Source: Gemmatimonadaceae bacterium (GTDB taxonomy: Bacteria; Gemmatimonadota; Gemmatimonadetes; Gemmatimonadales; Gemmatimonadaceae). From it: a DNA stretch of 64,000 nt. The stretch covers positions 1 to 64,000 of the forward strand of contig JAIEMN010000002.1 of assembly GCA_019752115.1 (NCBI GenBank), in the 5' to 3' direction. Both the position numbers and the translations under genes were made by a program. The notes below the pieces were generated by a model, which was not told the origin of the DNA, made no database searches, and was given only the letters and a program-made list of their open reading frames with translations. Numbering within the stretch: the first letter of the stretch is position 1; each line of letters begins with the position of its first letter. Shown here piece after piece: positions 53,399-59,860 of this stretch.

Positions 53399-53478
53399 CC
53401 ACGCAACCTCGAATGAAATGATCCAATGCGCAACGTTCCGATGACACACGTCGCGCGCACACGACACATCGTGCCGCC

Positions 53479-56400
53479 GTGCTCACCATCAAGACTGCTG
53501 CTTCCCTTCTCGCATCGGCCGATTCGCTCGACACGATGCTCCCCATCGCGCACCTGCTGGGCTTCACCGGCGAGGTGACCCGCCTGCGCGGGGCCGCGCG
53601 GCGCGATCTGGGTATCGCTTCCTACGCGAGCCAGGCCCGGCTGGTCCCGGGGAGCGGTGCGATCTGCTGCTTGCTCGCCCGCCTGGCGCCGCCGGCGGCT
53701 GTTGGCCCGACCTACGATGCCCGCGAGCGCACCCGCCTGCTGGCGGTGCAGCTCGTGAAGCGCTCGCCCACCCGGCACTGGTGTGTGCTGGCGATCGATC
53801 ACGACGGGCACCTGCTCACGCTCGCCACCGTCACCGACTCGCCCCACGGGCCGCGCATTGCCGCGCTGCGCCTCGATCGGCGGCGCGTGCTCGACTCCGA
53901 TGCCGACACGGTACGGGCGCTCGCCGCGGTGACCGATGACGACCCGCTGCTCCGCCATGCGCGCTTCACCGACATCCTGCGCCGCGATGCGCTCACGCAT
54001 CGCTTCTACCGGGCACTTGAACAGAGCGTCACCGCGCTTGGCGACTCCCTCTCGCTGGCGGACACCCCGCGTCGGCCGGGCCGCCCTCCGGCCTCGCCAC
54101 TCGCCATGGAGCGGCGCGAGCTGGCGTTGCTCGCCGCGTCGCGCCTGCTGTTCCTCGCCTTCATCGAGGCGAAAGGGTGGCTCAACGGGCAACGGGACTT
54201 CCTCATGCAGCACGCGCTGCGGGTGCTCGAGGCCAATGGCTCGCTGCACGAGGCGCTGTTGCGGCCGCTCTTCTTCGGCACGCTCAACACGCCACGTTCC
54301 CGACGGGCGCCCGTGGCGCGGGCGTTCGGGGCGGTGCCCTTTCTCAACGGCGGCCTGTTCACGCCCACGCCGCTCGAGAAGCGCTTCACGCGCTACCGCT
54401 TCAGCAATGACGCGCTCACAGGACTCGTGACGGGCGTGCTCGACCGCTATCGCTTTACCGCGCGCGAAGACTCCGCCAGTTGGTCGGAGGCCGCGGTGGA
54501 TCCGGAAATGCTGGGACGTGCCTTCGAGTCGTTGATGGCAGCCGAGGAACGGCGGCGTTCCGGTTCCTTCTACACGCCGCCGCATCTGGTCGCGCAGGCG
54601 GTGCGTGAGGCATTGCTCAGTGCAATCCCCGAACTGCCGACAGCTCTGCTCGACGATCAGCCGGATGTACGCCCCCTGCCGGCGGCACTGGCTGCGCGGT
54701 TGCGGCCGCAGCTCGAGGCGCTGCGGGTGCTTGATCCGGCGTGCGGCTCGGGGGCGTTCCTGGTGCACGTACTCGAGCGTATCGATGCAGCGCTGGCGGC
54801 GTGTGGCGACGTGCGGGAGGCGCATGTGCGCCGTCGCGAGGTGCTGACGCGCTCCGTCTTCGGGGTGGACCGTCAGCCGATGGCCGTATGGCTCTGCGAG
54901 CTTCGACTGTGGCTGTCGGTGGTGATTGAATGCGCCGAGCCGGATGTCGCGCGCCTGGCACCGCTGCCGAATCTCGATCATCACATTCGTGTGGGCGACT
55001 CGCTGGCGGGTGGGGCGTTCGACTTTGCCCCACCGTCGCCAGCGCGGCTCACCGCGCTGCGGGCGCGCTACGTACGCGCCAGCGGGGCGCGCAAGGCCAC
55101 CTTGGCCAGTGAGCTCGACCGCGAGGAGCGCCAGCGAGCGCTTGCGGAGCTGGACCGTCGCCGGAGCGCGGTGTACGCCGAGCGTGAAGCACTCCTGCTG
55201 TCGTTGCGCGGGCGCGACCTGTTCGGTGAACGGCGACGTGCATCGGCGGCGGATCGCGCGCAGCTGGCGCTGCTGCGTCTGTCGGTGCGGGCGCTGGCGT
55301 TGCAGCGTCGCGCGCTGGCGCTGGGTGGGGCGTTGCCCTTTCGCTATGCAGCGATGTTTGCCGATGTCGCGGCGCGGGGCGGATTCACGCTGGTGGTGGG
55401 GAACCCGCCGTGGGTGCGGCCGCATGCCATGCCGGTCGCCGAGCGGGTGTGGCTGCGGCAGGAGTTCCGGACGATGCGCGATGCCACGTGGCGGGACGGG
55501 GCGCGGGGTGCCGGTGCGGGGGCGGGCTTTGCCGGGCAGGCCGATCTGGCGGTGGCGTTCATCGAGCGCGCCGTGCAATTGCTGGCCCCGAACGGCACGC
55601 TGGCGCTGCTCGTGCCGGCCAAGCTGTGGCGGACGCTGTCGGGCGGCGGCGTTCGGCGGCTGCTGTTGCGAGACGCGCAGCTGCGTGCGCTGCACGACTG
55701 GAGCGACGCGCCGGCGCAGTTCGATGCCGCGACCTATCCGTCGCTCGTGGTCGCCACGCGCCGAGCGCCAGTGGAGCGGCTGGCGCTGGCCGAGTGGGCG
55801 GCAGCCCCGTCGGAGGGGTCGGCGGTTCTCACCACCACCACTGGCTCGGCGCAAGAGATGACGATCCGCATTTCGATCACGCGAACGCACACCACGCGCT
55901 TCAGCACCAGTGCGCCGGCGCTGTCGCTGGGCGGCGAGGCGGGCGCGCCGTGGGTGTTGCTGCCGGCGCCGGCGCAGGCGGCCTTCGAGACGTTGCGGCG
56001 CACGGGCGTACCCCTCGCGCAGTCCGTGATGGGGCGGCCGCTGCTGGGGGTGAAGTGCGGGTACAACGCGGCCTTTCTGGTGCGGGCGGTGGAGCATGAT
56101 GATGATACGGCGACCGTGATGACCGACGATCCTGCGCGCCCGCGCCAGGGGGTCATCGAGCGCACGCTGTTGCGCCCGGTTCTGCGTGGTGAGGAGGTCG
56201 GTCACTGGTTCCTCGATCATGAGGTAACGACAAGCGGCTCTGCACAAACGCTGCGCATCATCTGGACGCACAACTCGGCGGGCGAGGTGCTGCGCACGCT
56301 GCCACCGGCGACGGCGCGGTGGATGGCGCAATGGAAACCGGGTTTGAGCAGCCGGTCGGATATCCGGCATCGGCAGCCGTGGTGGACGCTCTTCCGTACC

Positions 56401-56847
56401 GAAGCGGCGCGGAGCGATGCGGTGCGCATCGTGTGGGCGGACATCGGTCGGAAGTTACGCTCGCGGGTGCTGCTGCCCGGCGATCCCACGGTGCCGCTCA
56501 ACTCCTGCTATGTCGTGCGGGCGCCGCATCCCAACGACGCCTATGCGCTGCATGCGCTCCTGCGCTCCACGATCGCGTCGGCGTGGTTGGATGTGCTCGC
56601 CGAGCCAGCGCGTGGCGGGTTCCGCCGCTTTCTGGGGTGGACGGTCGCCGCGTTACCGGTGCCGCGGGATTGGGCGTCGGCTGTGCGCCTGCTCGCGCCG
56701 GCCGGTCGCGCGTTGTCGCGGGATGATCACCGGCAGCTCGAGGCGCAGACGAACGCCTTGCTCGATCTGGATGAGCTGGTGGCGCTCGCCTATGGGATTC
56801 CGGTCAACGAATTGCTTCCCCTGCTGGAGTGGTACGTGCATGCGTGA
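53479..56847 (+). CDS. Eco57I-type DNA adenine methylase, putative defence protein
   Basis: Encodes 1,122 residues from a GTG at 53479. The methylase core has GSFYTPPHLV (motif X, residues 362-371), DPACGSGAFL (motif I, 419-428, SAM binding) and VVGNPPW (motif IV, NPPW at 642-645), the gamma-class order of N6-adenine enzymes. LFLAFIEAKGWLNGQRDFL at about 224-242 is shared with Eco57I/PglX-like proteins. The C-terminus (LDLDELVALAYGI) is Type IIG-like, and residues about 700-1,050 may recognise the target. The N-terminal 200 residues show no nuclease motif I can identify. It overlaps the SNF2-type helicase gene by eight bases, so the pair is coupled. Confidence 0.85.
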   Translation: MLTIKTAASLLASADSLDTMLPIAHLLGFTGEVTRLRGAARRDLGIASYASQARLVPGSGAICCLLARLAPPAAVGPTYDARERTRLLAVQLVKRSPTRHWCVLAIDHDGHLLTLATVTDSPHGPRIAALRLDRRRVLDSDADTVRALAAVTDDDPLLRHARFTDILRRDALTHRFYRALEQSVTALGDSLSLADTPRRPGRPPASPLAMERRELALLAASRLLFLAFIEAKGWLNGQRDFLMQHALRVLEANGSLHEALLRPLFFGTLNTPRSRRAPVARAFGAVPFLNGGLFTPTPLEKRFTRYRFSNDALTGLVTGVLDRYRFTAREDSASWSEAAVDPEMLGRAFESLMAAEERRRSGSFYTPPHLVAQAVREALLSAIPELPTALLDDQPDVRPLPAALAARLRPQLEALRVLDPACGSGAFLVHVLERIDAALAACGDVREAHVRRREVLTRSVFGVDRQPMAVWLCELRLWLSVVIECAEPDVARLAPLPNLDHHIRVGDSLAGGAFDFAPPSPARLTALRARYVRASGARKATLASELDREERQRALAELDRRRSAVYAEREALLLSLRGRDLFGERRRASAADRAQLALLRLSVRALALQRRALALGGALPFRYAAMFADVAARGGFTLVVGNPPWVRPHAMPVAERVWLRQEFRTMRDATWRDGARGAGAGAGFAGQADLAVAFIERAVQLLAPNGTLALLVPAKLWRTLSGGGVRRLLLRDAQLRALHDWSDAPAQFDAATYPSLVVATRRAPVERLALAEWAAAPSEGSAVLTTTTGSAQEMTIRISITRTHTTRFSTSAPALSLGGEAGAPWVLLPAPAQAAFETLRRTGVPLAQSVMGRPLLGVKCGYNAAFLVRAVEHDDDTATVMTDDPARPRQGVIERTLLRPVLRGEEVGHWFLDHEVTTSGSAQTLRIIWTHNSAGEVLRTLPPATARWMAQWKPGLSSRSDIRHRQPWWTLFRTEAARSDAVRIVWADIGRKLRSRVLLPGDPTVPLNSCYVVRAPHPNDAYALHALLRSTIASAWLDVLAEPARGGFRRFLGWTVAALPVPRDWASAVRLLAPAGRALSRDDHRQLEAQTNALLDLDELVALAYGIPVNELLPLLEWYVHA

Positions 56848-59200
56848 GGATCCTGGGATGACATCGCCGAGCCGCGCGGCTGAGGATGCGGTGCCCCCCG
56901 CGCCGCGTTCGTCGCGCGTGGCGCAGCGGCGGCTCGAGCTGGTGCGTGCCTACGTCGCGCAGAGTGTGTTGCCGCCACTTCCCTCGCCGACGTTGGGCGA
57001 GGTGGTGCTGGCCCCGCATCAGCGGGAGGCAGCGGCGCGACTGCTGCGCATACTGGCGCGACATGGCGGGGCGTTGCTCGCCGATGATGTGGGGTTGGGC
57101 AAGACGTACGTGGGGCTGGCCGTGGCGCGGGAGTACGAGCGGTGCATGGTGATTGCGCCAGCGGCGCTGTTGCCGATGTGGGCGGCGGCGGTGCGGCGCA
57201 CGCACACCACGGGAGCCGCGCTCGTGTCGCTGCATGCCTTTTCGCGTGGCGATGGGCCTGCGCTCGATACGGGCGCGCGACGACTGGTGATCATCGACGA
57301 GGCGCATCATCTGCGGAATCCCGCCACGCAGCGATACCAACGGGTGTCAGCAGCGATTGCCGGCGCGGATGTGCTGTTGCTGTCGGCGACGCCCGTGCAC
57401 AATCGCGAGGGCGATGTCCGGGCGATGCTGGCGCTCTTTGCCGGAAGTCGGCCGAACCTACTGGAGGCGGGGCGGCGTGCGGAGCTGATCGTGCGCCGAG
57501 ACGCGGCCATGGTGGGCGGGGCATCGAGTGCCGTCGCGGGGAGCCGGCCGGCGGTGCGGTGGCATCGGGCGCATCGGGTACCGATGGATCGCGCGATTCT
57601 GGAGCGGATCATGGCGTTGCCGGCGCCGTTGCCGGCCAAGGACGGGGCGGAGGCCGGGGCGCTCATCCGCATGGGGTTGCTGCGCGCCTGGTGTTCGAGC
57701 GAGGCGGCGTTGCTCGATGCGGTGCGCAGGCGGCGGTTGCGCGGCGCGGTGTTGCGCGATGCGTTGGAGGTGGGGCGCCATCCGACGCAGGCGGAGCTGC
57801 GATCGTGGGCCGTCTCGGAGGGCGACGTGCAGCTCGGATTCGCCGAGCTGTTGGCGTCGGGGCCGGTGGAGCATGGGCCGTTGCTCGCCGTTTTGGACCG
57901 TCACCTGGCGGCGCTGGAAGCGCTTTCCGATGCGCTGCGGAGCGCCGGTGGTAGTGACGCGGAGCGGGCGGCGTGGTTGAGGCGCGTAGTGGCGGCGCAT
58001 CCGGGGGTGCCGGTAGTGGCGTTCTCGCAGTACGCGCGCACGGTGGAGGCGATGTACCGGGCGCTCCGCGATATCGCTGGCGTCGGGATGCTGACCGGTG
58101 CGCGTGCGCGGATTGCCAGCGGCCCGATCGGCCGGCAGGAGGCGTTGCAGCGATTCGCGCCGAGGGCGCATGAACGTCCGCCACCGCCGTCGCATGCGGC
58201 GATCCGTGTGCTGCTGACGACGGATCTGTTAGCCGAGGGGGTGAACCTGCAGGATGCGGGCGTCGTGGTGCATTGCGATGCGCCGTGGACCGCGGCGTTG
58301 CGTGATCAGCGAGTGGGGCGCGCGGTGCGCATGGGCTCACCGTGGGGGGTGGTGCACGTCTATCGGCTGGCGCCGTCGCTCGAGGTCGAGGGGGCGTTGC
58401 GATGGGAGGCGCGGGTGGTGCGCAAGGCGGCGATTGGTGCGCGGGTGGTGGGGCGCGCCGGGAGATCGCGGAGTGTGGTGGAAGTGCGCAGTGCACTGCT
58501 GGCGCAGTTTGCCGAGTGGGCCCGTGCATCGGACGCGGTGGATGTCCCGGATGCGGCGTCGCTACGGGTGGCGGTGCAGCGCGTGCGGGCCTTGCCCGTG
58601 GTGGGTGGTGTGCGACCGGTGGTGGCGGCGCTGATCGCGGGCGGCGCATCGCGCGCGGCGAGCGGCGTGATGGCCGCCTGGTTGGTGGATGGCGGATGGC
58701 GCGTCAGTGGGCGCGATGCGCGGGTGATGGCGTTCGTGGCGGCGGCGAGTGCGGGGCCGGTGGCGCCGGCGCAGGTGTCGAGTGCGGCGAAGCGCGCGTG
58801 GCTGCGCGGGGTGTGGCGCGCCGAAGCGCGGTGGCGTGGGCGCGCGGCGGCGCGGGTGATTGCGGGGGAGGATCCCGGGGCACTGAGTGCGGTGCAGCGG
58901 AGCGCGTCGGCGCAGCTCGCGTGGGTGGCGCGGGGGCTGTCGGTTGCGGAGCGGGTGCGACTGGCGCCGTTCTTCGTGCGGGCACAGCGAGCGGTGGCGA
59001 TGGCGCGCTCGCCGGTGGCGGAGCGGGCGTTGCGCGGGTGGCTCGCCCAGGGGAATGCGCCGGTCGGCGACTGGATGGCGCGGGCGCCGGCAGCTGAGGA
59101 GCGGGTGTCGACACCGGAGACGGAGGGCGCGTCGGGCGGGCGCGTGCGGTATGTGCTCCTCCTGGTGGCGTGCGCTGCGTTTCGCGAACGGCGCGTGTAG
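56840..59200 (+). CDS. SNF2/DEAH-type helicase, partner of the methylase
   Basis: Encodes 786 residues from the ATG at 56840; 56858 is an alternative. Walker A is DDVGLGKT (82-89), motif II DEAH (153-156), motif III SATP (182-185), motif V LLTTDLLAEGVNL (about 458-470), and motif VI QRVGRAVRMGS (490-500, SNF2-like). The C-terminal 250 residues are Ala/Arg-rich and unlike any domain I know. DNA translocase activity is expected. Similar SNF2 helicase and methylase pairs occur in DISARM (DrmD with DrmMI), but no drmA, drmB, drmC or drmE lies here. Third codon positions are visibly G-rich compared with the C-rich neighbouring genes. Confidence 0.85.
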   Translation: MREDPGMTSPSRAAEDAVPPAPRSSRVAQRRLELVRAYVAQSVLPPLPSPTLGEVVLAPHQREAAARLLRILARHGGALLADDVGLGKTYVGLAVAREYERCMVIAPAALLPMWAAAVRRTHTTGAALVSLHAFSRGDGPALDTGARRLVIIDEAHHLRNPATQRYQRVSAAIAGADVLLLSATPVHNREGDVRAMLALFAGSRPNLLEAGRRAELIVRRDAAMVGGASSAVAGSRPAVRWHRAHRVPMDRAILERIMALPAPLPAKDGAEAGALIRMGLLRAWCSSEAALLDAVRRRRLRGAVLRDALEVGRHPTQAELRSWAVSEGDVQLGFAELLASGPVEHGPLLAVLDRHLAALEALSDALRSAGGSDAERAAWLRRVVAAHPGVPVVAFSQYARTVEAMYRALRDIAGVGMLTGARARIASGPIGRQEALQRFAPRAHERPPPPSHAAIRVLLTTDLLAEGVNLQDAGVVVHCDAPWTAALRDQRVGRAVRMGSPWGVVHVYRLAPSLEVEGALRWEARVVRKAAIGARVVGRAGRSRSVVEVRSALLAQFAEWARASDAVDVPDAASLRVAVQRVRALPVVGGVRPVVAALIAGGASRAASGVMAAWLVDGGWRVSGRDARVMAFVAAASAGPVAPAQVSSAAKRAWLRGVWRAEARWRGRAAARVIAGEDPGALSAVQRSASAQLAWVARGLSVAERVRLAPFFVRAQRAVAMARSPVAERALRGWLAQGNAPVGDWMARAPAAEERVSTPETEGASGGRVRYVLLLVACAAFRERRV

Positions 59201-59212
59201 ACTTCGCGCACC

Positions 59213-59860
59213 ATGACCACGCGCCACGCTCTGCTCTTCGATCTTGATGGGACGCTGATCGATTCCATCGGCCTCCTGCTCGAGTGCATGGAGTTTGCGT
59301 TTGCAACGCGCGAGCGGCGGCCGACGACGGCGCAGTGGGTGGCGGGGATCGGAACGCCGCTGCGCACGCAGTTGGCGGAGTGGTGCGACACCGAGGCCGA
59401 TGTGGATGCCATGGTGACGCGCTACCGCGAGTACCAGGATCTCCATCTCGAGCGGCTCACGACGGCCTTTGCCGGGGTGCCCGAGATGCTGGCGTGGGCG
59501 CGCGCGGAGGGGCACCCGACGGCGATCGTGACCAGCAAGGGGCGCGGCATGACGGATCGATCCTTACGGCATGTGGGGCTGCTGGGCGCGTTCGATGCGA
59601 TCGTGACGTATGAGGAGACGGCACGCCATAAGCCCCTGCCCGATCCGGTGTGGCTGGCGTGTGAGCGGCTCGGGGTGCCGCCGGCGCGGGCGCTGTTTGT
59701 CGGCGATTCGCCGCACGACATGCATGCCGGCCGGTCGGCCGGGAGCCGGACCGGGGCGGCGCTGTGGGGGCCGTTCACCCGGGACGAGTTGGCGCCGGCG
59801 CACCCCGATTTCTGGATGGGCAGCATGACCGAATTGCCGCAGGTCGTGGCGCAACTGTAA
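59213..59860 (+). CDS. HAD hydrolase, phosphoglycolate phosphatase-like
   Basis: Encodes 215 residues from the ATG at 59213. HAD motif I is LLFDLDGTLIDS (nucleophile first Asp), motif II AIVTSKG (Thr/Ser), and motif III/IV HKPLPDPVWL with FVGDSPHDMHAG (Lys and the acidic pair). The cap domain is of the alpha-helical C1 type, in line with Gph/PpaX-type enzymes that remove phosphate from 2-phosphoglycolate or pyrophosphate. The start follows the helicase stop by only 12 bases; nevertheless it is probably a housekeeping gene rather than part of the defence pair. Confidence 0.87.
   Translation: MTTRHALLFDLDGTLIDSIGLLLECMEFAFATRERRPTTAQWVAGIGTPLRTQLAEWCDTEADVDAMVTRYREYQDLHLERLTTAFAGVPEMLAWARAEGHPTAIVTSKGRGMTDRSLRHVGLLGAFDAIVTYEETARHKPLPDPVWLACERLGVPPARALFVGDSPHDMHAGRSAGSRTGAALWGPFTRDELAPAHPDFWMGSMTELPQVVAQL

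What the first reader, a model, noticed from the sequence alone, without database searches (positions are those of the whole stretch)
53479..59200. Two-gene methylase and SNF2-like helicase system
Seen: NPPW methylase overlapping a DEAH/SNF2 helicase by eight bases. Known: DISARM uses a SNF2 helicase (DrmD) with an adenine methylase (DrmMI) plus DrmA, DrmB, DrmC and DrmE; Type ISP enzymes join helicase, methylase and nuclease in one chain. Neither complete set is here, and no nuclease domain is visible. Inference: a minimal or previously undescribed anti-phage module.
Basis: partly seen in the sequence, partly recalled or inferred. Interest (0 to 1): 0.8.

Follow-up and report, generated by a model that had tools for sequence, protein, structure and literature searches.

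The report
Core nuclease-less methylase–SNF2 helicase pair
Two overlapping genes, a DNA adenine methylase and a SNF2-type motor protein, look like an old restriction system that lost its DNA-cutting part and became a fixed, inherited part of the chromosome in nearly all members of one bacterial family (Gemmatimonadaceae), where it probably marks the cell's own DNA.

Summary
A 1122-aa Eco57I/IIG-type N6-adenine methyltransferase (MT, NPPW, window 53479-56847) overlaps by eight bases a 786-aa SNF2 helicase (HEL, 56840-59200). No nuclease signature was found. The interpretation, an undescribed anti-phage module, is only partly supported. The pair is a near-core locus. MT occurs in 153/179 and HEL in 149/179 genomes of the family, at one syntenic place (glycosyltransferase/aminotransferase/chromate transporter – MT – HEL – HAD phosphatase – sigma factor), with clean empty sites in three genomes that lack it. 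Gene trees follow the taxonomic families, and no close copy turned up in the phage, plasmid or viral collections searched. The nearest relatives elsewhere are mobile-looking two-gene systems: an active HKD/PLD-nuclease–SNF2 helicase plus an NPPY methylase. In two other families of the class the helicase keeps a dead PLD relic (HAK to W[AT]P). In the window's order the domain is gone. Methylase and ATPase motifs are conserved, both genes are under purifying selection, and the target-recognition region is far more conserved than in the HKD relatives. Best reading: a domesticated, nuclease-less restriction-modification derivative giving a fixed host m6A mark, analogous to CamA/CcrM but coupled to an SNF2 motor. 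Methylation, motif and phenotype are untested.

The parts
53479..56847 (+). MT: N6-adenine DNA methyltransferase of Eco57I/Type IIG/BrxX kind, 1122 aa, DPACGSG + NPPW
53479..53973 (+). MT N-terminal domain (res. 1-165), confidently modelled alpha/beta; sits where MmeI/DrdV carry their nuclease but has no conserved D/E/K triad and no family match
54694..55758 (+). MT catalytic domain (about res. 406-760) with SAM motif DPACGSGAF at 419-427 and catalytic NPPW at 642-645
55876..56664 (+). MT target-recognition region (about res. 800-1062), unusually conserved among orthologs
56840..56847 (+). eight-base overlap ATGCGTGA: HEL start codon and MT stop codon
56840..59200 (+). HEL: SNF2-type helicase/translocase, 786 aa, intact ATPase motifs, no N-terminal nuclease domain
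58457..59197 (+). HEL C-terminal tail (res. 540-786), fast-evolving helical, low confidence, no nuclease match
59213..59860 (+). HAD-family phosphatase: conserved neighbour of HEL (syntenic marker; functional link not shown)

Best explanation
The pair is a domesticated, nuclease-less derivative of a two-gene restriction-modification-like system (HKD/PLD-nuclease-SNF2 helicase plus IIG/BrxX-like methylase). Shown by sequence: an ancestor-like HKD-SNF2 + MTase pair exists in many phyla; in other Gemmatimonadota families the HKD domain is a dead relic; in the window's order it is gone; MT and ATPase motifs are kept; the locus is fixed, vertically inherited and occasionally lost. Inferred: MT methylates N6 of adenine at one fixed motif of the host chromosome, and HEL, which no longer feeds a nuclease, acts as a DNA translocase that assists or regulates methylation (clearing bound proteins, or surveying unmethylated DNA). 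The net effect is thus a core epigenetic mark, not restriction.
For: MT in 153/179 and HEL in 149/179 family genomes, 34/35 and 33/35 genera; MT also in 53 of 58 sampled genomes of the two other families of the order (my count). HEL is beside MT in nearly all inspected loci of six families. Same flanks in the family, HAD neighbour also in other families, clean empty sites in three genomes. Each family is monophyletic in the MT tree, nearly all in the HEL tree. HKD-SNF2 + MTase relatives. Dead PLD relic: hhalign Prob 96.5, E 8.8e-10, versus at most 0.33 in 20 shuffles, with HAK replaced by W[AT]P. TRD/core identity ratio 0.84-0.94 versus 0.60-0.75 in HKD-partner methylases. dN/dS below 0.4 for both genes in nine pairs. 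Best structural matches of MT: CamA, a core orphan methylase (Z 23.5), and BrxX.
Against: No methylation, motif, ATPase or phenotype data. HEL's intact, conserved motor could mean a nuclease-independent or externally supplied restriction step. The pair is dispensable (lost in small genomes, apparently decayed in genus g30), so it is not essential. The PLD relic was not detectable in family f10. The TRD comparison uses non-independent pairs and a phylogenetically wider control group, at least one member of which carries the Type_ISP_C specificity domain.
Confidence: 0.6

Rival explanations
1. Still a defence system: MT marks self, HEL recognises unmodified incoming DNA and blocks it without cutting (BREX/DISARM-like translocation, replication block) or recruits an unlinked nuclease.
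For: Both genes descend from RM-like relatives; MT's fold is close to BrxX; HEL scores against DpdE, DrmD and ZorD models; losses concentrate in small genomes; HEL evolves faster than MT in most pairs.
Against: Fixed locus, vertical inheritance, no close mobile copies, conserved TRD, nuclease lost. No third gene, apart from the general syntenic neighbours, is held beside the pair.
Confidence: 0.25
2. An ordinary Type IIG restriction enzyme (nuclease in the MT N-terminus) with an accessory helicase.
For: PADLOC's best model for MT is a IIG REase-MTase (E 4.7e-42); the N-terminal domain lies where MmeI/DrdV nucleases lie.
Against: No conserved D/E/K triad in residues 1-205 of 44 sequences; invariant columns are only M1 L11 G28 F29 S140 D141 A142 T144; no Pfam or PDB-sequence match. 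The structure of this domain alone was not searched.
Confidence: 0.08
3. A fragment of DISARM or BREX whose other genes are elsewhere.
For: Weak scores to DrmMI/DrmD and PglX; single MZB-domain and PglZ hits exist on other contigs.
Against: Scores far below equivalog cut-offs (DrmD 67.5 vs 610; BREX_2_MTaseX 47.2 vs 400); no such genes among the conserved neighbours; other contigs only.
Confidence: 0.04

Closest known systems
HKD/PLD-nuclease-SNF2 helicase + IIG/Type ISP-like methylase pair (PADLOC profile C3a139 'HKD+Snf2')
   Same: SNF2 core and adjacent, often overlapping methylase; helicases form one clade with the Gemmatimonadota ones against the other SNF2 proteins sampled
   Different: Gene order reversed (helicase first), active HKD (HAK) domain, NPPY instead of NPPW in most, phyla mixed in the tree, diversified TRD; the window's helicase has no HKD domain
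CamA of Clostridioides difficile (core orphan adenine methylase, PMC8187626)
   Same: Best structural match (Z 23.5, 526 residues); present in all genomes of a taxon; no nuclease partner
   Different: CamA matches the model only from residue 326 on, so it lacks the N-terminal part, and it is described as an orphan enzyme; here an SNF2 motor is co-inherited; wider (order-level) conservation
BREX BrxX/PglX with BrxH helicases (PMC12839542)
   Same: Overall MT fold from residue 171 on (Z 22.7)
   Different: No PglZ beside it; below BREX cut-offs
DISARM class 1 (DrmD + DrmMI)
   Same: SNF2 helicase and adenine methylase
   Different: No DrmB in the neighbourhood; scores about a tenth of the DrmD cut-off
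Type ISP enzymes LlaGI/LlaBIII
   Same: MT aligns with their methylase-TRD half (Z 20.5)
   Different: Two chains, no nuclease, SNF2 motor in a separate protein

Membership tests
DISARM | DrmB (MZB/DUF1998) next to the helicase-methylase pair | tested here: not met
   only MZB hit in the genome is on contig C22, window is C2; flanks are metabolic/transport genes
DISARM | helicase scores as DrmD | tested here: not met
   67.5 bits vs cut-off 610
BREX | PglZ and BrxC with PglX-type methylase | tested here: not met
   PglZ only on C19; PglX models far under cut-off; BrxC not searched separately
Type ISP RM | nuclease, helicase and methylase in one chain | tested here: not met
   two genes, no nuclease match
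Type IIG RM | PD-(D/E)XK nuclease in the methylase N-terminus | tested here: inconclusive
   no conserved catalytic residues, no sequence match; N-terminal fold alone not searched
HKD-SNF2 + methylase pair | SNF2 helicase and methylase encoded side by side | tested here: met
HKD-SNF2 + methylase pair | N-terminal HKD nuclease with intact HxK on the helicase | tested here: not met
   absent in the window's HEL; dead relic in f5/f7
Core (persistent) host methylase such as CamA/CcrM | near-universal, vertically inherited in the taxon without cognate nuclease | tested here: met
Core (persistent) host methylase such as CamA/CcrM | conserved target specificity | tested here: inconclusive
   TRD conserved in sequence; actual motif unknown
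Core (persistent) host methylase such as CamA/CcrM | methylates the host genome and affects host physiology | not testable with these tools
   needs m6A sequencing and deletion mutants

The most novel reading that the evidence does not exclude
A lineage-defining bacterial epigenetic system in which an adenine methylase is coupled to its own SNF2 motor: a nuclease-free 'writer plus remodeller' domesticated from a restriction system and kept across an order.
Probability: 0.35. Interest if true: 0.85.

Novelty: new variant of a known kind. Interest (0 to 1): 0.62.

Why it matters
It gives a readable sequence of steps in the domestication of a restriction-like system: active HKD nuclease in relatives, dead relic in sister families, deletion in the order, with methylase and motor kept. 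If methylation is confirmed, Gemmatimonadaceae would have a family-wide m6A mark with a dedicated SNF2 partner, which makes the question of what a nuclease-less translocase does for a methylase directly testable. It also warns that helicase-methylase pairs found by defence scans need not be defence systems.

Tried and rejected
DISARM/BREX fragment. Nuclease in the MT N-terminus or HEL tail: no match by Pfam, PDB sequences or conservation. Mobile copies: in 'phages' only three distant halovirus IIG-type enzymes, in 'plasmids' only partial matches (25-31% identity in the rows listed), in viral contigs only generic helicase similarity. PLD relic in family f10: not detected (Prob 0.1). VIA-align rows barely cover residues 1-170, so nothing is concluded about that domain's fold. 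Literature searches for this pair in Gemmatimonas or for a Gemmatimonas methylome found nothing relevant, within an open-access library only. A phylum-level search of whole genomes with MT failed once and was replaced by a class-level one.

Full report
What is there. The window holds MT (53479-56847, 1122 aa) and HEL (56840-59200, 786 aa) on the plus strand, overlapping by ATGCGTGA. MT matches Eco57I and N6_Mtase; HEL matches Helicase_C and SNF2. Orthologs support both start codons.

Surroundings. Upstream lie gamma-glutamyltranspeptidase, NUDIX, LD-carboxypeptidase, glycosyltransferase 2, class IV aminotransferase and chromate transporter genes; downstream a HAD phosphatase, a sigma-70-family sigma factor (regions 2 and 4 only), a weak zinc-finger anti-sigma candidate and a DUF4097 protein. 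None is a defence gene. In the Gemmatimonadaceae loci with enough flank most of the same genes surround the pair, and HAD stays near HEL in several loci of other families.

Distribution. MT: 153 of 179 family genomes, 94 of 105 of good quality. HEL: 149 of 179, 91 of 105. In the class sample, 53 of 58 genomes of the two other families of the order have MT by my count of the listed rows; further class families f5 and f10 carry it often, f7 in a few strong cases, and most other genomes sampled do not. HEL lies next to MT in nearly every locus inspected in f1, f2, f3, f5, f7 and f10. Exceptions: G072 keeps MT but lacks HEL, with its methylase motifs intact; G001 has about 11 kb inserted near the end of MT; three genomes of genus g30 show stops in MT. 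Many genomes without the pair are small (1.8-2.4 Mb). In three of the genomes that lack it, NUDIX, glycosyltransferase and HAD genes remain in order with no room for the pair between the last two. That is clean loss from a fixed place. In some other absences the contigs are short, so assembly gaps cannot be excluded.

Inheritance. In the MT tree each taxonomic family is one clade; in the HEL tree all but f5 (two rows) are. The HKD relatives, in contrast, mix phyla. No close copy was found in phages, plasmids (searched with MT) or viral contigs (searched with HEL).

Origin. The nearest helicases outside Gemmatimonadota carry an N-terminal PLD/HKD domain (PF13091, RE_NgoFVII; HAK before the Walker A motif; PADLOC C3a139 'HKD+Snf2') and are followed by an NPPY methylase of IIG or Type ISP kind; a methylase of this cluster is in 39 loci and no third gene recurs in more than 6, antisense ORFs set aside. 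In Gemmatimonadota families f5/f7 the helicase's N-terminal extension aligns with the HKD profile (Prob 96.5, E 8.8e-10; 20 column shuffles at most 0.33), but the catalytic HAK reads WAP or WTP (the residue-level match is my reading of that alignment). HEL of the window's family begins about 50 residues before the helicase and has no such domain. So the nuclease was most likely inactivated and then lost while the rest was kept. The MT tree adds that L052 and L057, partners of active HKD helicases, are the closest outside methylases; the other HKD partners are a distinct methylase subfamily on a long branch.

Constraint. SAM and catalytic motifs and helicase motifs are invariant or nearly so. 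dN/dS is 0.09-0.34 for MT and 0.18-0.39 for HEL in nine species pairs. In equal bins of catalytic-core identity, the target-recognition region of the family's MTs keeps 0.84-0.94 of the core's identity, against 0.60-0.75 in HKD partners; at 65-75% core identity it is 62.7% against 40.1%. Restriction systems usually diversify this region (established knowledge); a stable one points to a fixed mark. Pairs are not independent, so this is an indication, not a statistical test.

Structure. The MT model (pLDDT 76.5) is closest to CamA (Z 23.5), BrxX (22.7), BseCI (21.2), Type ISP LlaGI (20.5), DrdV (20.0) and MmeI (19.6). Residues 1-165 stand where DrdV and MmeI have their nuclease, without a conserved triad. 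The HEL core matches SNF2 remodellers and ZorD; its tail is poorly predicted.

Mechanism. Shown: anatomy, conservation, fixed locus, nuclease absence. Inferred: MT methylates host adenines at a fixed motif; HEL is a DNA translocase that helps MT or reads the methylation state. CamA, specified by all C. difficile genomes sequenced and an orphan enzyme needed for normal sporulation and biofilm formation (PMC8187626), is the best functional analogy. Defence without cutting is the main rival.

Novelty. The enzyme families are known, and helicase-HKD-methylase restriction-like systems are described (PMC12839542, PMC10853773). A nuclease-less, order-wide, syntenic MTase-SNF2 pair was not found described in the held library. 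Hence: new variant of a known kind.

Noticed in passing
L114 4957-16561 (G001:C3): About 11 kb inserted in or near the last part of MT, separating it from HEL; probably a mobile element.
   Followed up: partly
G130, G131, G132 (genus g30): All three genomes show in-frame TGA stops in MT, suggesting decay in that genus.
   Followed up: no
L113 6880-7300 (G072): Tandem repeat translating as ATARYGALRR, about a dozen copies, upstream of an MT whose HEL is missing.
   Followed up: no
L026-L075: Widespread two-gene HKD/PLD-SNF2 helicase + NPPY methylase units across many phyla, with no third recurrent gene; a candidate restriction system in its own right.
   Followed up: partly
window 53467-53479: The listed chromate transporter start (minus strand, 53467) and the MT start are only 11 bases apart and divergent.
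   Followed up: no
G000:C19:206506-207084 and G000:C19:90967-91500: A PglZ-domain gene and a second SNF2 gene lie on another contig of the same genome.
   Followed up: no
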